NCBI RefSeq assembly: GCF_021129305.1
Contig: NZ_JAJOMB010000014.1
Span: forward strand, 124,001 to 188,000
Origin: Kineosporia babensis
GTDB lineage: Bacteria; Actinomycetota; Actinomycetes; Actinomycetales; Kineosporiaceae
Reading direction: 5' to 3'
Length of the DNA stretch: 64,000 nt
Made by a program: the position numbers and the translations under genes. Within the stretch, counting starts at the first letter, position 1; every line of letters begins with the position of its first letter. The notes under the pieces were generated by a model. It worked only from the letters and a program-made list of their open reading frames with translations, was not told the origin of the DNA and ran no database searches. Positions 12,292 to 21,941 of the stretch are shown piece after piece.

Positions 12292-12505
12292 CGGCCCAGG
12301 CAGTGCGCGTGGCGAAGGCCCTCGCCTGGACGAACCCGTCACCACGCACCGCCAGCGCTCGCTGCTGCAGTACTGACCAGCGCCAAGTTCGTCCCACGGT
12401 CCAGTTGGACGAAGCCGGTTGCACACCGGAGCCTTGGTCCGAGTGAGGCAGTCCCCGGCGGTCTCACTCCGGGGTACTTGTCAGTTGAGTACGTACCAAC
12501 TCGGG
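12292..12505. repeat. Long direct repeat, copy 1
   Basis: About 215 bp that recurs in the same orientation at 17165-17381, roughly 90% identical by eye and with one short indel near the left end. Conserved features include CCCCGG/CCGGGG hairpin arms at about 12454-12475 and, on the minus strand, a short coding end that reads SWYVLN-stop (SWYVIN-stop in copy 2). Here the coding end is cut off directly by IS3-like sequence. With the leader of the SAV_915-like gene, this fills the 12184-12570 gap. Confidence 0.8.
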
Positions 12506-12990
12506 ACTGCCCCCAGCTTGGCTGACTCCTGACTGCCAAGGACCGCGGTCCTTGCTGAGAGGATGTCAACGTGCCCAAACCGTTCCTCGAGGAGTTCCGC
12601 CGCGACGTGATCGCGCTCGCCCGTCCGGGCGATGCCACGATCGAGCAGGTCGTGGGCTACTCCATCGACTCCCGGATGAAGGCGTCCCTGGCCGTCAGAG
12701 CGCTCAAAATTGCCGTGGCCCTGCGGAATCCACGCGGAACGATTGTCCACTTGGACCGCGGGAGCCAGTTCCGCTCCAAAAGTTCGTCCGCGCCCTGAAG
12801 AAGGCCAAGCTACGGGGTTCGATGGGCCGGGTCGGCGCGTGTGGCGACAACGCCCTGGCCGAGAGCGAGGTCGGCTCTCTACAAGACTGAACTCCATCCA
12901 CCCGCAGGGACCTGGAAAGGCCTGGACCACGTGGAATTGGCCACCCTGGAATGCCGGTGAATTCGCTCAGCCGTCGTCCAGGCCGAGCTG
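12504..12990 (+). mobile_element. Remnant of an IS3-family insertion sequence
   Basis: The left side begins GGGACTGCCCCCAGCTTGG, which resembles IS3-family ends, directly against repeat copy 1. It holds pieces of orfA and orfB only. The right end is not recognisable. The element is too degraded to move. Confidence 0.65.
12571..12987 (+). pseudogene. IS3-family transposase, internally deleted and frameshifted
   Basis: The frame from 12571 starts as orfA (MPKPFLEEFRRDVIALARPG), then jumps at about residue 28 into the middle of an orfB integrase (VGYSIDSRMKASLAV, HLDRGSQFRSK, which contains the second catalytic Asp region). The next part continues in another frame (KFVRALKKAKLRGSMGRVG, ACGDNALAES). 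A last piece in a third frame (ALYKTEL, TWKGLDHVELATLE) is the orfB C-terminal region. The DDE domain is incomplete, so no active transposase can be made. Confidence 0.8.
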
Positions 12991-14339: not shown

Positions 14340-15028
14340 ATGAAGCGTGCGCTGGTGCTCGGTGGGGGGCGGGATCACGGGGATCGGCTGGGAGGTGGGG
14401 GTCTTGGCCGGCCTGCTCGATGAAGGGGTGGATCTTCGCAATGCCGATGCGGTGATCGGCACGTCTGCCGGATCGTTTGTCGAGGCGATCGGGGCGCGCT
14501 TCGGTCTCGTCTCCCGAAGCTTCCCGGCTCAGGTCGATCCCGAGGTCAGGCGAGCCGCCGTTCGGGGGTGAGGCTGTGGACCGAGGCCTGGCCGCCGGCG
14601 CTGAGAGTTGCCGTGACCGACGCCGAGACCGGTGTGCTGACCCTGCTGGACGCGCACACGGGCGTCTCGCTCGAAGACGCCACCATGGCCAGCGGTGCTG
14701 TGCCCGGCATCTGGCCCCCGGTCCATTTCCGCGGCCGTGAGTGGATCGACGCCGGCATGATGTCGCCCGCGAATGCGCACCTGGCCATCGGTTACGACCG
14801 GATCGTCGTCCTGGCCCCATGCCGTCCAGCGGGGAAGGCACACCCAGCGCCGTGGATGCCGTCGCCCGCCTCAACGAATCCGCCCAGGCGAGGCTGGAGA
14901 TCCCGGACGACGTCAGCCGTGAAGCCTTCGGCCCCAACCCCTATGACCCTGATCGAGCAGCGCCGGCCGCGCAGCAGGGCCGCCGCCAGGGGCGGTCCTT
15001 CGCCGAGCAGGTGTCCGCCATCTGGTGA
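14340..15028 (+). pseudogene. Patatin-like phospholipase, broken by frameshifts
   Basis: The start (MKRALVLGGG) follows a good ribosome site. One extra G in a G-run near 14366 shifts the frame; the following frame reads GITGIGWEVGVLAGLLDEG and the lipase motif GTSAGS. That frame ends at 14571 after unrelated residues, where a central segment appears deleted. The remainder (VAVTDAETGVLTLLDAHTG; WIDAGMMSPANAHLA, where patatins have DGG) lies in a third frame, and the tail to 15028 in another. At least three lesions make it inactive. Confidence 0.8.
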
Positions 15029-15112
15029 AAGATGCTGCACCACAGGCCTGCCGGCTAGCTTCTCCGTAACGGCCAACGACCGAGACGGTCGCCGGGCCCC
15101 CGACAGCATGGT

Positions 15113-16351
15113 TCATCGGGCCAGCTCTGGGTAGGTGGCAGGCTGCCAGCTACCACCGCGGTCCTCGGTGGCGAACCGGGCCACGAGCTCGGGGATGTGC
15201 AGTCGTGTTGCTGCTGCGGTGGCTGTCTGAAAGGCGGTGATGGCCGCGCGCGTGTTCGGCAGACCGACCCGCAGGAGCCGGGGCTTGACCGTGCTCTGGA
15301 TCTCGTTGACGAAGGGACGCAGGGTGGCCTCGTAGCGTGCGAAGGCGGCCCGGTGGTCGTCCGGGCTCTGGGACAGCTCCCCGGCCAGGGTGTAGGCGCC
15401 CACCAGGCTGCCGGTCACACCCATTCCGCTGTACGGAGAAGCGCAGTGCGCAGCATCGCCGACGAGCACGACTCGTCCCTTTGACCAGAGGTTCGACCTG
15501 ACCTGCACCACCTCTTGGGAGTAGAAGAAGGACGCGTCCTGCATACCCCGGATGAATCGCTGCGTCTGCCAGCCCGCATCCTGAAATCGTTCGGCCCAGA
15601 ATGCCTTCTGCTCATCGACGGGCTGCCGGTGAATCGCTGAGGCCTGGGCTGAGGTCTCCCGCAGGACGAAGTACACCTGGGTCTCGGTGGTGTTGTGGCT
15701 TCGGCGCATGATCTGACGGCCACGGGTGGCCATGTAGGTGTCGCGGATGTTCCCGTCACCGGCGACGCGCGGGATGAACCAGTAGGCCATGTGCATGCCG
15801 GTACGCCAGTAGGGCTCCGGTGATCCGGCCGGCAGCAGGGCCTGGCGGATCCGGGAACCCTGTCCGTCCGCGCCCACGAGCAGGTCGTACTCCTGCTCGG
15901 ATCCGTCCGAGAGATGGGCGAGCACGGTGTCGGCGTCCTGGTCGAATCTGTCCACGCTCAGCCCGTAGCGGCACTCGACGCTCTGCTTGGTCGCGTCGTT
16001 GAGGATGCGGACCAGGTCTCCCCGCATGATCTCGTACTCCGAGGTCAGGCTCTGCCGTCCCTGCCCGGAGGTGTTCGCCATGATCGTTGCCCGGGTCTTG
16101 CCGTGGGCGTCCACGAACGCCACACCGGGTTCGTCGACCAGGTGATCGCGGATGGACTCCAGGATTCCCATCCGCTGGGCCATGTCAATGCCCTGACCTC
16201 GCAGGTCCACCTGTGCCCCGGTAGCCCGAAGAGCCGGGAACCGTTCGATCACGGTTGCCTGGTGACCGCCCCTGGCCAGCCAGAAAGCCAGTGCCGGGCC
16301 GGCGATCCCGCCACCGGCGATCAGAACCCGCAATGAGCGTCCCGCACGCAT
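15113..16351 (-). CDS. TetX-like FAD-dependent monooxygenase
   Basis: A group A flavoprotein monooxygenase of 412 residues from the ATG at 16351, which has GGGAG 9 bp upstream; an ATG at 16360 gives three more residues but abuts that site. It has the FAD-binding GGGIAG near residue 13, ADGQGSRIR, and GDAAHCASPYSGMGV near residue 290. The segment GAQVDLRGQGIDMAQRMGI resembles the corresponding part of TetX. Regulation strengthens the link: tetO-like operators and a divergent TetR. A role in oxidising a tetracycline-like polyketide is an inference. Confidence 0.85.
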   Translation of the reverse strand: MRAGRSLRVLIAGGGIAGPALAFWLARGGHQATVIERFPALRATGAQVDLRGQGIDMAQRMGILESIRDHLVDEPGVAFVDAHGKTRATIMANTSGQGRQSLTSEYEIMRGDLVRILNDATKQSVECRYGLSVDRFDQDADTVLAHLSDGSEQEYDLLVGADGQGSRIRQALLPAGSPEPYWRTGMHMAYWFIPRVAGDGNIRDTYMATRGRQIMRRSHNTTETQVYFVLRETSAQASAIHRQPVDEQKAFWAERFQDAGWQTQRFIRGMQDASFFYSQEVVQVRSNLWSKGRVVLVGDAAHCASPYSGMGVTGSLVGAYTLAGELSQSPDDHRAAFARYEATLRPFVNEIQSTVKPRLLRVGLPNTRAAITAFQTATAAATRLHIPELVARFATEDRGGSWQPATYPELAR

Positions 16352-17164: not shown

Positions 17165-17381
17165 CGGCCCAGGCAGTGTGCGCGGCAAAGGCAAAGGCCC
17201 CGCCCGGGCGAACCCGTCACCACGCACTGCCAGCGCTCGCTGCTGCAGTACTGACCAGCGCCGAGTTCGTCCCACGGTCCAGTTGGACGAAGCCGGTTGC
17301 ACGCCGGAGCCTTGCTCTGAGTGAGGCCGTCCCCGGCGGTCTCAGTCCGGGGTACTTGTCAGTTGATCACGTACCAACTCA
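17165..17381. repeat. Long direct repeat, copy 2
   Basis: Matches 12292-12505 in the same orientation. It covers the last codons of the HNH nuclease gene (SWYVIN and stop at 17359), a CCCCGG/CCGGGG hairpin 6 nt after that stop which could end its transcript, and about 170 bp of further conserved non-coding sequence. It starts 60 bp after the TetR gene. Confidence 0.8.
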
Positions 17382-18074
17382 GGAAGTCATGCTGGTCGAG
17401 TGCCTCAGACAACCGGGCGGGTAGAATTCGGCGCATAGCTGGGAACTGATTCATGCGTGCAGCCATGTAGACGACGTCTGCGAACGGCTGGTCGAGCAAG
17501 GCTCGTTGCTCGAAGAGCGCCCGGCCCTGGTCCCCGGCTGCTCGTGCCTCGAGCCACTCCCGCATCAGCGCCGAGGCCGCTCGGAGGGCTGCCAGCCGAC
17601 CGCGCGGCAAGGTACCCCGGTTCAGCCCGAGCACGTCGATGCTGACTTCGCCGCGAGTCGTCAACGATTGGTAGAAGCCGGTGCCCGGGCTCAGGCGCAG
17701 GTGCTCCCAGGGGTCGTCGCTGGTCGGGTCGAGCAACTGCGGGTGCCCATCGAGAAAGGGAAACGGTCACGTTTGAAGTTGCTGTTGCAATGAGTGCACG
17801 CCAGCAGATGGTTACTCCAGTCGAACGTGCGGGCCGGTAGGTGAGCTATCGGCTGATAGTGGTCGATGGCGCTGCCTTCGCTGTCACCGCAGAACATGCA
17901 GCGGTGACGTCCCGCCGCCATGCTCTGAAGCATCGACCTGACCGATGAGCGTTCAGCTTTCGCGTTCTTCCAGGCTCGGCGAGCATCTGCCGCCTCGCCG
18001 GTGAGGGCTCCGGTGAGCTCGTGGAGTCGGGCCTGAACCGGATCGGGCAACGGGAGCCTGACCATAGGGATCAT
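17359..18074 (-). pseudogene. HNH endonuclease, PtuB-like, with a -1 frameshift
   Basis: The first frame (18074 to about 17755) gives the HNH core: CMFCGDSEGSAIDHYQPIAH with zinc cysteines and catalytic His, then ACTHCNSNFKRDRFP. The rest, in the -1 frame to 17359, continues sensibly (LDGHPQLLDPTSDDPWEHL ... DFLSWYVIN). Joined, the protein is about 238 residues, the size of Septu PtuB. The shift falls on AGGGAAA (TTTCCCT on the coding strand) at 17757-17763. Its ATG overlaps the ATPase stop (ATGA). It is probably inactive unless ribosomes slip there. Confidence 0.75.
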
Positions 18075-19491
18075 TCCGCGAGCCTGGTCGCGACCTCTTC
18101 CACGCGGGAAAGCAGCGAACTTGTGGTGCGGCGGAGGAGATCGTCGTACTCGCCGACCTCGACCTCGCTGGCTTGCCCGTCAACGATGCGCTGCTCGAGC
18201 TGAACGAGACGTCGGCGGGCTTCCTCGGCGCGGCGTGAGTAGGGCGTATCTACGTCGAACAGGTCAGAGATGGCCGCGTCGTCCCCGCTGCCGTAGATCA
18301 CCAGGCTGTAGAGGTCGTCGCTGACGGTTGTCGGCGGAGTCTGATCGTTCGGTCCGCCCAGCCGGATGAGTCCACGAGGATCCGCCGACTGACAGATGTA
18401 GGGGCTGTGCGAAGAAACGATGAACTGGATCGCCGGGAAGTGCGTCTTGAGCCAGTCACCCACGATCTTCTGCCACGAGATATGGAGATGCGCGTCCAGT
18501 TCGTCGATCAGCACCACACCCGGAGCGTCCACATAGGGCGCTCCTTCCTCGTCGTGGCTCACCTGCAGCGTGCCCTGCGCCTCGTGGATCTGATGGAGGA
18601 TATCGAGCACGAGTGATGCCACCGTTCGATAGCCGTCGCTCATCTCCCGCAGGGCGAGCCGCTGTCCTTCTCGGGCTACCCAGAGACCATCTGCATCCAC
18701 GCGTTCGATGATGTAGCCGTCCGGCAGCAGGCCGTGGCCCATGATCTTCAGGACCGCGTCCAGGAGTGCTTCAGCGCCTGGCCTTCCCTCCAGGCTGCGA
18801 AGGTGCTGATCGATGAGCCACGAGACGCTTTCGCTCACCGATGCGTCCTCGTGGAAGAGGGTGACCAGGCGGGCTACGGGAGCGGGGGCAGTCATGAGTC
18901 GCTGGCTTTCCACTCCTCCACCGGCAAGCCGGCGGAACGGCCCGTAGCCGGCGACGAACCACCCTCTGGGATTGTCTGTCCAAGGGCCGTTCTGGACGAA
19001 GTGCAACGAACTTTCGCTAGGCGCGAGTTTCATGCTCAACGCGGGACGGCGGGCATTCGGGTGCTCCGGGGTGGAGGGGCGTTCCCATTGCAGCCCGATC
19101 CAGAATTTCTGTGGCATCTCGAAACGGTTGAAGGCGAAGAGATCTGACGCGCGGTCTACGAAGACCTTGATCTCGACACTGCCGACTTCTGCGTCGTGGC
19201 TGAGCTAGTCATCGAAACTGGCGACCAGGCTGCGGGCGACGAACGGCCCGGCGAGGGCCAGGGCGATGGCACGCAGGAGCGTCGTCTTCCCTGCCCCGTT
19301 GCGCCCGGCTATCACGCTCAGGCCGCTGTGCGAATCATCGGGCCGGGTCAAGGACAGAGACACCGAACGTGGCCGTGGAAACTTTTGATCCCGGAGATCT
19401 TCACGTCGGACACGTACATGCCGCTTGCTACCCCGATCTCAAAGTCTCCGAAAGCCGGGACGATAGTACAGCGGCGGAAAGCCTTTGCCAT
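18071..19491 (-). pseudogene. AAA ATPase, PtuA-like, with a frameshift and a nonsense codon
   Basis: The gene starts at the ATG at 19491 (MAKAFRRCTIVPAFGDFEIG) behind AGGAAA. A missing base near 19372 shifts the frame after SGIKSFHG. The next frame has Walker A GRNGAGKTT (about 19280-19307), then a TAG at 19205-19207 after SFDD. The remaining 348 residues from 19117 carry an ABC-ATPase signature-like segment (LREMSDGYRT), Walker B VVLIDELDAHLH and the switch SSHSPYI, as in OLD/RecF-like ATPases. The repaired length, about 473 residues, fits PtuA. Translation may restart at 19117, but without Walker A. Confidence 0.8.
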
Positions 19492-20210: not shown

Positions 20211-20574
20211 ACGATCCGGGCTATCGTTGGAGATGGACAGGCTCGGATGGGGCGGCGAAGGAAAACCCCTATGAACGCGCGCTGCAATCCGGGGTAATTC
20301 GCGATGCAGGCGCACCGGACTTGGGTAGCCGGGCGCTGTGGTTACTCAGGGGAATATGGATTACCTGGTTCAGTTGCTTGAAGTTCCGTTGATACAGCGC
20401 GCTGGAAGGTAACCTCTGGGTTTCATCCATCTTCAAAGAGTGTATCCAGCCTGCCGCGGGGCGCTTACCTGCTTCTCGGGGGACCAGTGAGGTCGGGGGG
20501 TCTGCACGTCGGCACGGCTGAACTCGGACAGTCGTGCCCTCGATCAGGTAAGGCAAGTGGGGTGCGGAGGGCAC
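20211..20574. other. Intergenic, no gene seen
   Basis: I see no convincing gene, RNA or long palindrome here. GGAGG at 20566-20570 is the ribosome site of the next gene. The promoter of the regulator should lie here, but no clear -35/-10 pair stands out. Confidence 0.5.
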
Positions 20575-21504
20575 ATGTCAAAGTTCGATGATCTGTTGAG
20601 CATACCGACGAGTCAGAAGAAACGGGCGCTGCGCTCGATCCTGCGTGACATGCGAGATCGCGCGGGGCTGACTCAGAAGGAAGCTGCTGATCGGGTCGCG
20701 TGGGGGATCAGTAAGCTCACGCGCATCGAGAACGGCATTGTCTCGGTAACTCCCGGCGATGTGCGGCACCTGCTCCTGGATTACGGGGCCAGCGAGGACG
20801 ACCGCGCGGCCTTGATCGAACTGGCTCGCCAGGCCCGACAGCGAGACACCTTCAGTGGGTATCGGGGGGATACCCGCCGGGCGGCGATGCATGACCTTCT
20901 GGACTACGAGAAGGTCGCGCGGTCCATCCGGACGTACGAACCCTTTCTCATTCCGGGCCTGTTGCAGACCAAGGCCTATGCGATGGCGTTGCTGCGGGGC
21001 TGGGGCGTGAGTGACGACGAGGCCCAGCACGTCTGGGACGTTCGCGCGGCCCGGCAGCGGATGCTGAGAGAGACCAAAGAGCCGATCCGGATCGACATCG
21101 TGATCCGGGAGGCGGCCCTGGTCACCCGGGTCGGCACCGACCAGATCATGCTCGATCAACTGGCCGCTCTTCAGGAACGGGCCGACCCCGCGGACTCGCA
21201 TCATGACGTGCGGATCCACATTCTGCGGGCGGATGCCGGTCATCCCCGCGGGGCCGACCGTTCACTGATGATCCTGGAACTGAGGAACAAGTGGCTGGGG
21301 GATGTCGTCTTTCTGGAGGATGCCGGCGGGGCGACGATCAACAGTAATGACAGCGAAGAAGAGTTCCGACGCTACACCACGATCTTTGCCGAGATCCGGA
21401 AGAGATCGACGGAAGGCCTTTCCGGCACCGATGAAACCGGTCGGTTCGTCGAGCAGATCGACGAGATCCGGGGGCGTTTCCGGCCCGAGCGCGTCGCATC
21501 GTGA
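20575..21504 (+). CDS. Helix-turn-helix DUF5753 regulator (Scr1-type)
   Basis: 309 residues from an ATG at 20575 behind GGAGG. The N-terminus is an XRE helix-turn-helix (LRDMRDRAGLTQKEAADRVAWG, in part; then SKLTRIENG). The rest is a DUF5753 domain with its hallmarks: YEPFLIPGLLQTKAYAMALL and later VHI-type strands (DVRIHILRADAGHP). This family is abundant in filamentous actinomycetes and nearly always precedes a DUF397 gene, as here at 21720. The pair resembles toxin-antitoxin or developmental regulators. Its role at this locus is not known. Confidence 0.9.
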   Translation: MSKFDDLLSIPTSQKKRALRSILRDMRDRAGLTQKEAADRVAWGISKLTRIENGIVSVTPGDVRHLLLDYGASEDDRAALIELARQARQRDTFSGYRGDTRRAAMHDLLDYEKVARSIRTYEPFLIPGLLQTKAYAMALLRGWGVSDDEAQHVWDVRAARQRMLRETKEPIRIDIVIREAALVTRVGTDQIMLDQLAALQERADPADSHHDVRIHILRADAGHPRGADRSLMILELRNKWLGDVVFLEDAGGATINSNDSEEEFRRYTTIFAEIRKRSTEGLSGTDETGRFVEQIDEIRGRFRPERVAS

Positions 21505-21719
21505 TCAATTCCTGGAGTCGGGTCAATTTCGCGACAGGTCGGTTACCGGACGATGAAATACCTCCGGCGGGAGTGGCGTGCCGGGCGCAAGTTGTTGAAG
21601 GGTGCGCCTGGGAATTCTGTTCTCCGGAATTGGCGTGACGCCATAAATACCGCGACCTATCCTGGCGAAGGCGGGATGACTTCCATCCACGCTTTCATGA
21701 TTGGCATCTGGGGGTTGCG

Positions 21720-21941
21720 ATGCTCGAGTCGGGTGACGAGTCGAACTGGCGGATCAGTAGCTTCAGCGGCATGAACAATTGTGTTGCCGTGGCCGCCACC
21801 GGGTCGGGGGTATCGGTCCGGAACTCCAAAGCCGCCAGCGCAGCGAACGTTTCGTTCACGGCTGACGAATGGCGAGCCTTCGTCCATGGTGTGAAGGCCG
21901 GCGAGTTCGATCTGGACGACGGCGGGGCGTTCGCCGGCTGA
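21720..21941 (+). CDS. DUF397 protein, partner of the DUF5753 regulator
   Basis: A 73-residue acidic protein with the DUF397 signature: W-R-I-SSFSGMNNCVAVA, VSVRNSK, VSFTADEWRAFVHGVKAGEFD. It starts at an ATG just after GGGGG. The 215-bp space after the regulator gene is longer than usual for such pairs and holds no recognisable gene. DUF397 proteins are thought to counteract or co-act with the upstream helix-turn-helix protein. Confidence 0.88.
   Translation: MLESGDESNWRISSFSGMNNCVAVAATGSGVSVRNSKAASAANVSFTADEWRAFVHGVKAGEFDLDDGGAFAG

What the first reader, a model, noticed from the sequence alone, without database searches (positions are those of the whole stretch)
17359..19491. Decayed Septu-like (PtuA/PtuB-type) anti-phage pair
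An ATPase gene and an HNH nuclease gene overlap by ATGA, with sizes (about 473 and 238 residues after repair) and motifs like PtuA and PtuB. The ATPase has a 1-nt deletion near 19372 and a TAG at 19205-19207; the HNH gene has a -1 shift at 17757-17763. Apart from these, the coding frames are clean, so the decay looks recent.
Basis: partly seen in the sequence, partly recalled or inferred. Interest (0 to 1): 0.7.

Follow-up and report, generated by a model that had tools for sequence, protein, structure and literature searches.

The report
Broken Septu anti-phage gene pair
This is a dead copy of a known two-gene bacterial anti-phage system called Septu: both genes carry frame-breaking damage, while intact relatives occur in many other actinobacteria; it is ordinary apart from a hint that this branch of Septu may also have been studied as a methyl-DNA restriction system.

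Summary
On the minus strand, 19419-18071 is a PtuA-type ATPase gene and 18074-17359 a PtuB-type HNH gene, overlapping by ATGA. ptuA changes frame near 19372 and has a TAG at 19205-19207; ptuB changes frame at 17757-17763. Searched as separate pieces, both match PADLOC PtuA1 and PtuB1 best (439, 156, 101 bits). Relatives (best PtuA identity 56%) fold like solved Septu and retron PtuA/PtuB. 67 of 68 PtuB relatives read through the shift site in one frame: a lesion, not programmed frameshifting. Active-site motifs remain, so decay looks fairly recent, though conserved-site retention is at the low end. No clear frame break appeared in 55 compared genes (58 kb) of this genome, so general sequencing error is unlikely; local error is untested. 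A 220-bp direct repeat covers the last codons of ptuB. One non-routine point: PADLOC's 'mREase_IV' models hit the same clade, perhaps because they derive from ScoA3II+III (Sco3261-62), a methylcytosine-dependent restriction pair; that link is unverified. Verdict: decayed member of a known kind, low interest.

The parts
   Evidence: PADLOC PDLC00269 PtuA1 439 bits for piece 18071-19204 and 57 bits for piece 19208-19363; family start
19363..19390 (-). lesion 1: ptuA changes frame (one base short); by my reading of the family alignment the change lies near 19366-19372
   Evidence: frames, alignment
19283..19306 (-). Walker A (GRNGAGKT), intact
19205..19207 (-). lesion 2: in-frame TAG, at a conserved column of the family
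18632..18643 (-). ABC-signature-like MSDG, intact
18500..18517 (-). Walker B (VVLIDE), intact; followed by the D-loop-like DAHLH
18401..18412 (-). switch histidine motif SHSP, intact
18071..18074 (-). ATGA overlap of ptuA stop and ptuB start; the same geometry in 40 of 53 relative loci with both genes
17359..18074 (-). ptuB remnant (HNH nuclease of Septu type I)
   Evidence: PADLOC PDLC00317 PtuB1 156 bits (17691-18074) and 101 bits (17359-17763)
17784..17900 (-). HNH core of ptuB, intact: CMFC, IDH (17859-17867), WSNH (17808-17819), CTHCN
   Evidence: invariant columns
17757..17763 (-). lesion 3: ptuB changes frame; 67 of 68 relatives are read in one frame here
17165..17384 (.). 220-bp direct repeat, copy 2; its right end covers the last codons of ptuB
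   Evidence: two copies found in the genome, 90-92% alike
12292..12506 (.). 220-bp direct repeat, copy 1, next to a remnant transposase

Best explanation
A decayed Septu type I operon (ptuA-ptuB) with no reverse transcriptase seen beside it, in an accessory stretch of an actinobacterial genome. In intact relatives an oligomer of the PtuA ATPase would hold and gate the PtuB HNH nuclease, and infection or foreign DNA would release PtuB to cut nucleic acid and stop the phage. This is inferred from published Septu and retron work, not shown here. I favour foreign DNA as the target in this clade (about 0.5) over tRNA (about 0.3). Here each gene is broken, with one frame break plus one stop in ptuA and one frame break in ptuB. 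No second copy was found in the genome, so the strain should lack this defence.
For: PADLOC PtuA1 and PtuB1 are the top models for the pieces; among the 25 models listed for the large ptuA piece the best under a name other than PtuA or mREase_IV is retron ATPase_I-A at 80 bits against 439. A profile of relatives' PtuA hits PtuA chains in the first 12 of 22 PDB rows (104.7 bits to retron Ec83, 102.4 to Septu); that of PtuB hits PtuB chains in 8 of 9 rows. The PtuB model (Thermobifida relative, pLDDT 94.7) matches E. coli Septu PtuB 8eea_G at Z 17.4, rmsd 3.0 over 201 residues, and retron Ec78 PtuB at Z 17.1. The PtuA model (Kitasatospora relative, pLDDT 83.1) matches retron Ec78 PtuA at Z 27.7 and Septu PtuA 8eea_C at Z 27.1 over 369 residues. 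ATGA overlap in 40 of 53 relative loci. 67 of 68 relatives are one frame across the ptuB shift. Catalytic motifs are retained. One match in the own genome. No clear frame break among 55 compared genes, about 58 kb. Literature, passages only: Walker and HNH residues are needed for Septu EcB88, which cleaves tRNA-Tyr (PMC13096335); Septu of ATCC 25922 is reported to target DNA (PMC11555353).
Against: No reads are available, so a local sequencing or assembly fault is open. Conserved-site retention is low for the family: ptuA keeps 64 of 68 columns, less than 28 of 29 representatives scored leave-one-out, and ptuB 26 of 29, less than all 41; this may be drift after inactivation or plain divergence, and weakens 'recent'. 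The target of the nuclease in this clade is unknown.
Confidence: 0.87

Rival explanations
1. A type IV, modification-dependent restriction pair (PADLOC mREase_IV; perhaps the ScoA3II+III type) rather than Septu in the abortive-infection sense: the ATPase-HNH complex senses methylcytosine DNA and cuts it.
For: PDLC03660 and PDLC03661 are the second-best models (347 and 109 bits) and hit the same clade: 360-405 bits in eight core actinobacterial PtuA scanned whole, 190-284 in four members of sister groups, 140 in a Methylobacterium plasmid relative. ScoA3II+III (Sco3261-62) restricts m5C DNA in vivo (PMC3874153, passages).
Against: The Septu models score higher in every protein scanned. That the mREase_IV models come from Sco3261-62 is my inference; the 16-mer trick to find Sco3262 failed. 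No known methyl-binding domain is among the Pfam hits shown. In one genus the same model also rings at only 183-191 bits in 5 of 42 matches, of unknown placement.
Confidence: 0.3
2. Functional operon with assembly or sequencing faults at three sites.
For: 89-contig draft; all catalytic motifs looked for are intact; two of three lesions are one-base changes of frame.
Against: One lesion is a stop codon, not an indel. Genome completeness is 99.27%. No clear break in 55 compared genes. A neighbouring patatin gene is also split and internally shortened, which suggests regional decay.
Confidence: 0.1
3. Programmed -1 frameshifting lets ptuB (and ptuA) be made despite the breaks.
For: The ptuB site reads T TTC CCT in the zero frame, a heptamer of the X XXY YYZ form (sequence; the rule is recalled).
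Against: 67 of 68 relatives have no shift there. By my reading ptuA would need a second shift at a site without such a heptamer, plus readthrough of a TAG.
Confidence: 0.02

Closest known systems
Septu type I, E. coli PtuAB (8eea/8ee4)
   Same: Two genes, ATPase and HNH; folds match over most of both proteins; motifs present
   Different: About 19-20% structural identity; this copy is broken; a separate, mainly actinobacterial clade
Retron Ec78/Eco7 and Ec83 effectors PtuA/PtuB
   Same: Equally close folds (Z 27.7 and 17.1); sequence profile hits
   Different: PtuA chains there are longer (mostly 542-552 aa); no reverse transcriptase among 10 neighbouring ORFs scanned and no Rfam match at 11.5-24.5 kb here
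PADLOC mREase_IV pair PDLC03660/PDLC03661 (possibly ScoA3II+III of S. coelicolor)
   Same: Same clade by score gradient; two-gene ATPase-HNH
   Different: Labelled as methyl-directed restriction; scores below the Septu models; identity with Sco3261-62 not verified
PtuAB of Streptomyces/Kitasatospora plasmids and of actinobacterial genomes incl. Thermobifida and Nocardiopsis (L003-L058, L080-L109)
   Same: Direct homologues; window PtuA best identity 56%; grouped with Thermobifida/Nocardiopsis in the tree (96/80, long branches)
   Different: 79 of 86 loci have an undamaged PtuA by my count

Membership tests
Septu type I (PtuA/PtuB) | PtuA ATPase matching Septu PtuA models | tested here: met
   PDLC00269, 439 bits, positions 74-445 of 446, plus 20-70; the NCBIfam retron-PtuA model is below its cut-off (76.9 of 500), as fits a non-retron PtuA
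Septu type I (PtuA/PtuB) | Adjacent HNH nuclease PtuB | tested here: met
   PDLC00317 on both pieces; Pfam HNH 23.7 bits above its cut-off 21.4; NCBIfam TIGR02646 32.1 bits, below its cut-off 52.15
Septu type I (PtuA/PtuB) | Fold of PtuA and PtuB | tested here: met
   Models of relatives, not of the broken copy: Z 27.1 and 17.4 to 8eea
Septu type I (PtuA/PtuB) | Intact reading frames | tested here: not met
   Three lesions: filed as a decayed remnant of the family, not as a working system
Septu type I (PtuA/PtuB) | Anti-phage activity | not testable with these tools
   Needs cloning of an intact relative
Retron type I-A (Septu type II) | Reverse transcriptase and msr-msd RNA next to ptuAB | tested here: not met
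   No RT in Pfam scans of 10 neighbouring ORFs, not of every ORF; no Rfam match at gathering threshold
Type IV modification-dependent restriction (mREase_IV, ScoA3II+III) | Homology to the named pair | tested here: inconclusive
   Second-best models; the founder sequence of the models is not known to me
Type IV modification-dependent restriction (mREase_IV, ScoA3II+III) | Restriction of methylated DNA | not testable with these tools
   In vivo assay needed

The most novel reading that the evidence does not exclude
The actinobacterial clade of Septu type I to which this remnant belongs is the same thing as the methylcytosine-dependent two-gene restriction system ScoA3II+III described in Streptomyces in 2009 (cited in PMC3874153; the 2009 paper itself not seen). 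Septu-type ATPase-HNH complexes would then include modification sensors acting on incoming DNA, or the old restriction phenotype would have been Septu firing on modified plasmids.
Probability: 0.35. Interest if true: 0.55.

Novelty: new member of a known kind. Interest (0 to 1): 0.2.

Why it matters
A dead Septu pair is routine: PADLOC's authors state that many putative defence genes are annotated as pseudogenes (PMC9252829, passages). The useful by-product is that PADLOC gives two functional names, Septu type I and type IV methyl-directed restriction, to one mainly actinobacterial clade. If the second name comes from ScoA3II+III, a cheap transformation and plaque assay on intact Streptomyces members would show whether Septu reads DNA modification. 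Reported targets of PtuAB range from tRNA-Tyr to DNA, so this would bear on an open question.

Tried and rejected
A codon-usage frame-shift scan of 464 kb of this genome missed the known ptuB break in one form and in another flagged 72 or 113 junctions in about 400 genes, ptuB among them. It was too unspecific and is not used. A first homology scan flagged 22 of 49 genes, which I put down to wrong-strand query ORFs. With codon-filtered queries 6 of 55 were flagged. On inspection these were: four with stops only within the first 36 alignment columns or at the very end (likely over-long or wrong-strand queries), one whose target has its longest open frame on the other strand, and one ABC-transporter query matching two neighbouring frames. 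The judgement on those six is mine.

Programmed frameshifting in ptuB was considered because of the slippery-looking heptamer, and rejected because 67 of 68 relatives show no shift.

A link between PADLOC mREase_IV and Sco3261-62 was sought through a 16-base site printed for SCO3262 in PMC4398421: 0 of 79 and 0 of 109 loci, 0 of 392 genomes. It remains unverified. Literature searches listed no paper whose title or abstract start joins Septu with Sco3261/ScoA3II or with methyl-directed restriction; most listed papers were not opened. Passages were seen of PMC3874153, PMC13096335, PMC11555353, PMC8565338, PMC12707154 (no mention of Septu or ScoA3), PMC4398421, PMC3009677 and PMC9252829.

A viral-contig scan with the window PtuA found no relative; the phage collection gave only 3 partial matches. 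The phylum sample found no other match at E <= 1e-20 in 395 other genomes, but four candidates at most per genome were scored there, and a model search found 39 of 392 genomes in one genus positive. I therefore do not call the family rare. The fold comparison listed the restriction enzyme VcaM4I only weakly (Z 2.3), which is no evidence either way. The promoter and terminator scan gave nothing usable (0 promoters, 1 terminator-like site against 2.0 expected).

Full report
What is there. On the minus strand of the window lies a pair of overlapping genes: an ATPase gene (19419 or 19491 down to 18071) and an HNH nuclease gene (18074 down to 17359), sharing ATGA. The ATPase gene changes frame near 19372 and has an in-frame TAG at 19205-19207; the HNH gene changes frame at 17757-17763. 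Its ATPase start is probably too early: four annotated plasmid relatives, and most others by homology, begin at the residues that in the window follow the ATG at 19419, which gives about 449 residues against mostly 430-480 in relatives.

Identity. The pieces were searched apart. Against PADLOC the large ATPase piece scores 439 bits to PtuA1 PDLC00269 (positions 74-445 of 446) and the small N-terminal piece 57 bits to positions 20-70. The HNH pieces score 156 and 101 bits to PtuB1 PDLC00317 (1-111 and 113-232 of 244). The second-best pair is mREase_IV PDLC03660/PDLC03661 (347 bits for the large ATPase piece, 109 and 55 for the HNH pieces); the best model under another name among the 25 listed is retron ATPase_I-A at 80 bits. 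Pfam gives AAA_21 and HNH; NCBIfam gives only sub-threshold retron PtuA/PtuB-type hits. PDB hits of the large ATPase piece are 12 distinct sequences, PtuA of retrons and of E. coli Septu. As profiles, the relatives' PtuA reaches 104.7 bits to retron Ec83 PtuA and 102.4 to Septu PtuA, and their PtuB reaches Ec78 PtuB (50.9 bits) and Septu PtuB (25.1 bits, E 0.00012).

Relatives. Plasmids gave 25 records, the best four at 51-56% identity in Kitasatospora and Streptomyces. A scan of genome contigs gave 49 loci, 44 of them Actinomycetota by their titles. A model search in one large genus gave 39 of 392 genomes. The ptuA piece has no match in the 5 other genomes of the window's genus nor in the 12 others of its family, and the two neighbouring genes tested have best relatives of 41% or less in the genus. 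The locus is therefore accessory. In the PtuA tree the window groups with Thermobifida and Nocardiopsis (96/80) on a long branch of 0.8, a placement the program calls unsure for long rows. In 40 of 53 relative loci with both genes, ptuB starts in the same 4-base overlap. No third gene recurs across the clade: the largest cluster of neighbouring ORFs was in 11 of 56 loci. There is no Rfam match around the locus.

Fold. Structures were predicted for relatives only. PtuB of Thermobifida has pLDDT 94.7 and matches E. coli Septu PtuB 8eea_G at Z 17.4, rmsd 3.0, 201 residues, and retron Ec78 PtuB at Z 17.1. The best HNH protein outside PtuB is at Z 6.9. PtuA of Kitasatospora has pLDDT 83.1 and matches Ec78 PtuA at Z 27.7 and Septu PtuA 8eea_C at Z 27.1 (369 residues). 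SMC and Rad50 heads come next, at about 19-22.

State of decay. Walker A, the signature-like MSDG, Walker B, D-loop and switch histidine of ptuA and the CxxC, IDH, WxN and CxxCN of ptuB are all present. Of columns conserved in at least 97% of representatives, the window keeps 64 of 68 (94%) in PtuA and 26 of 29 (90%) in PtuB. Leave-one-out values for 29 PtuA and 41 PtuB representatives run from 93 to 100%; the window is below 28 of the 29 and below all 41. The other members without a close relative are also low in PtuA (for example L039 93%, L038 94%), and two of the three PtuB misses are F/Y exchanges, so this is either divergence or a little drift. Rows left out before that count: seven broken PtuA loci, six distant PtuA rows, eight PtuB rows by name, exact duplicates and length outliers. 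67 of 68 PtuB relatives are read in one frame across the window's shift site, so a programmed shift is very unlikely.

Error or decay. The genome is a draft of 89 contigs with completeness 99.27. I compared 859 codon-filtered ORFs from 1.6 Mb of a same-genus genome with 464 kb of this genome. 55 genes aligned over about 58 kb at 50% identity or more; 6 were flagged and none looked like a real break on inspection. Three breaks in 2.1 kb is therefore not this genome's general error rate, but a local fault cannot be excluded without reads. The patatin-like gene at 14347-15134 is also split across frames and lacks the middle of its domain, and a transposase remnant lies at 12571-12795, so decay looks regional. 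A 220-bp direct repeat (12292-12506 and 17165-17384, 90-92% alike, two copies found in the genome) covers about the last 8 codons of ptuB; the near relatives L030 and L044 end just before that tail, while others such as L003 have an unlike tail of similar length. Decay also recurs in the family: 7 of 86 loci examined have a split, truncated or internally deleted PtuA (L032, L048, L049, L051, L056, L057, L100), some of them in drafts.

How it would work. Published work, seen here as passages: Septu EcB88 needs the Walker and HNH residues and cleaves tRNA-Tyr upon T6 infection (PMC13096335). Retron Eco7 PtuAB depletes tRNA-Tyr, while Septu of ATCC 25922 is reported to target DNA (PMC11555353). 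For this clade the only pointer to the target is the mREase_IV label. Its ATPase model scores 360-405 bits in eight core actinobacterial PtuA scanned whole, 190-284 in four sister-group members and 140 in an outlying plasmid relative; in one genus its 42 matches run from 183 to 405 bits, some of them partial. This points to a founder of that model inside the window's own clade. ScoA3II+III (Sco3261-62) restricts m5C DNA in vivo (PMC3874153). I infer, and could not verify, that the model derives from that pair. My commitment is an ATPase-gated HNH nuclease, target foreign DNA 0.5, tRNA 0.3, other 0.2; in this strain it should be inactive because both genes are broken and no second copy was found.

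Verdict. A decayed member of a known kind. Interest is low; the double labelling of one clade as Septu and as methyl-directed restriction is the part worth a small follow-up.

Noticed in passing
window 12292-12506 and 17165-17384: A direct repeat of about 220 bp, 90-92% alike, two copies found in the genome and only short weak matches in 4 of 197 other genomes of the order; its right end covers the last codons of ptuB.
   Followed up: partly
window 14347-15134: Patatin-like phospholipase gene split over two frames with the middle of the domain missing (Pfam positions 3-41 and 132-191 of 191).
   Followed up: partly
window 12571-12890: Remnant of a transposase with an rve integrase core (the IS3-family label is recalled).
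   Followed up: no
L030 2217-5332 (Thermobifida cellulosilytica): Two PtuA-like genes in tandem before one ptuB.
   Followed up: no
L032, L048, L049, L051, L056, L057, L100: Other members of the clade with split, truncated or internally deleted PtuA, 7 of 86 loci examined.
   Followed up: partly
PADLOC models PDLC00269/PDLC00317 and PDLC03660/PDLC03661: Two functional labels, Septu type I and type IV methyl-directed restriction, hit the same mainly actinobacterial clade.
   Followed up: partly
L011, L012, L014, L015, L025, upstream of ptuA: A Streptomyces subclade carries the same set of large ORFs just upstream (one of about 714 aa and one of about 579 aa), possibly another defence system.
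   Followed up: no
window 20557-21941: HTH_31/DUF5753 regulator followed by a DUF397 protein; a common actinobacterial pair as far as I recall.
   Followed up: no
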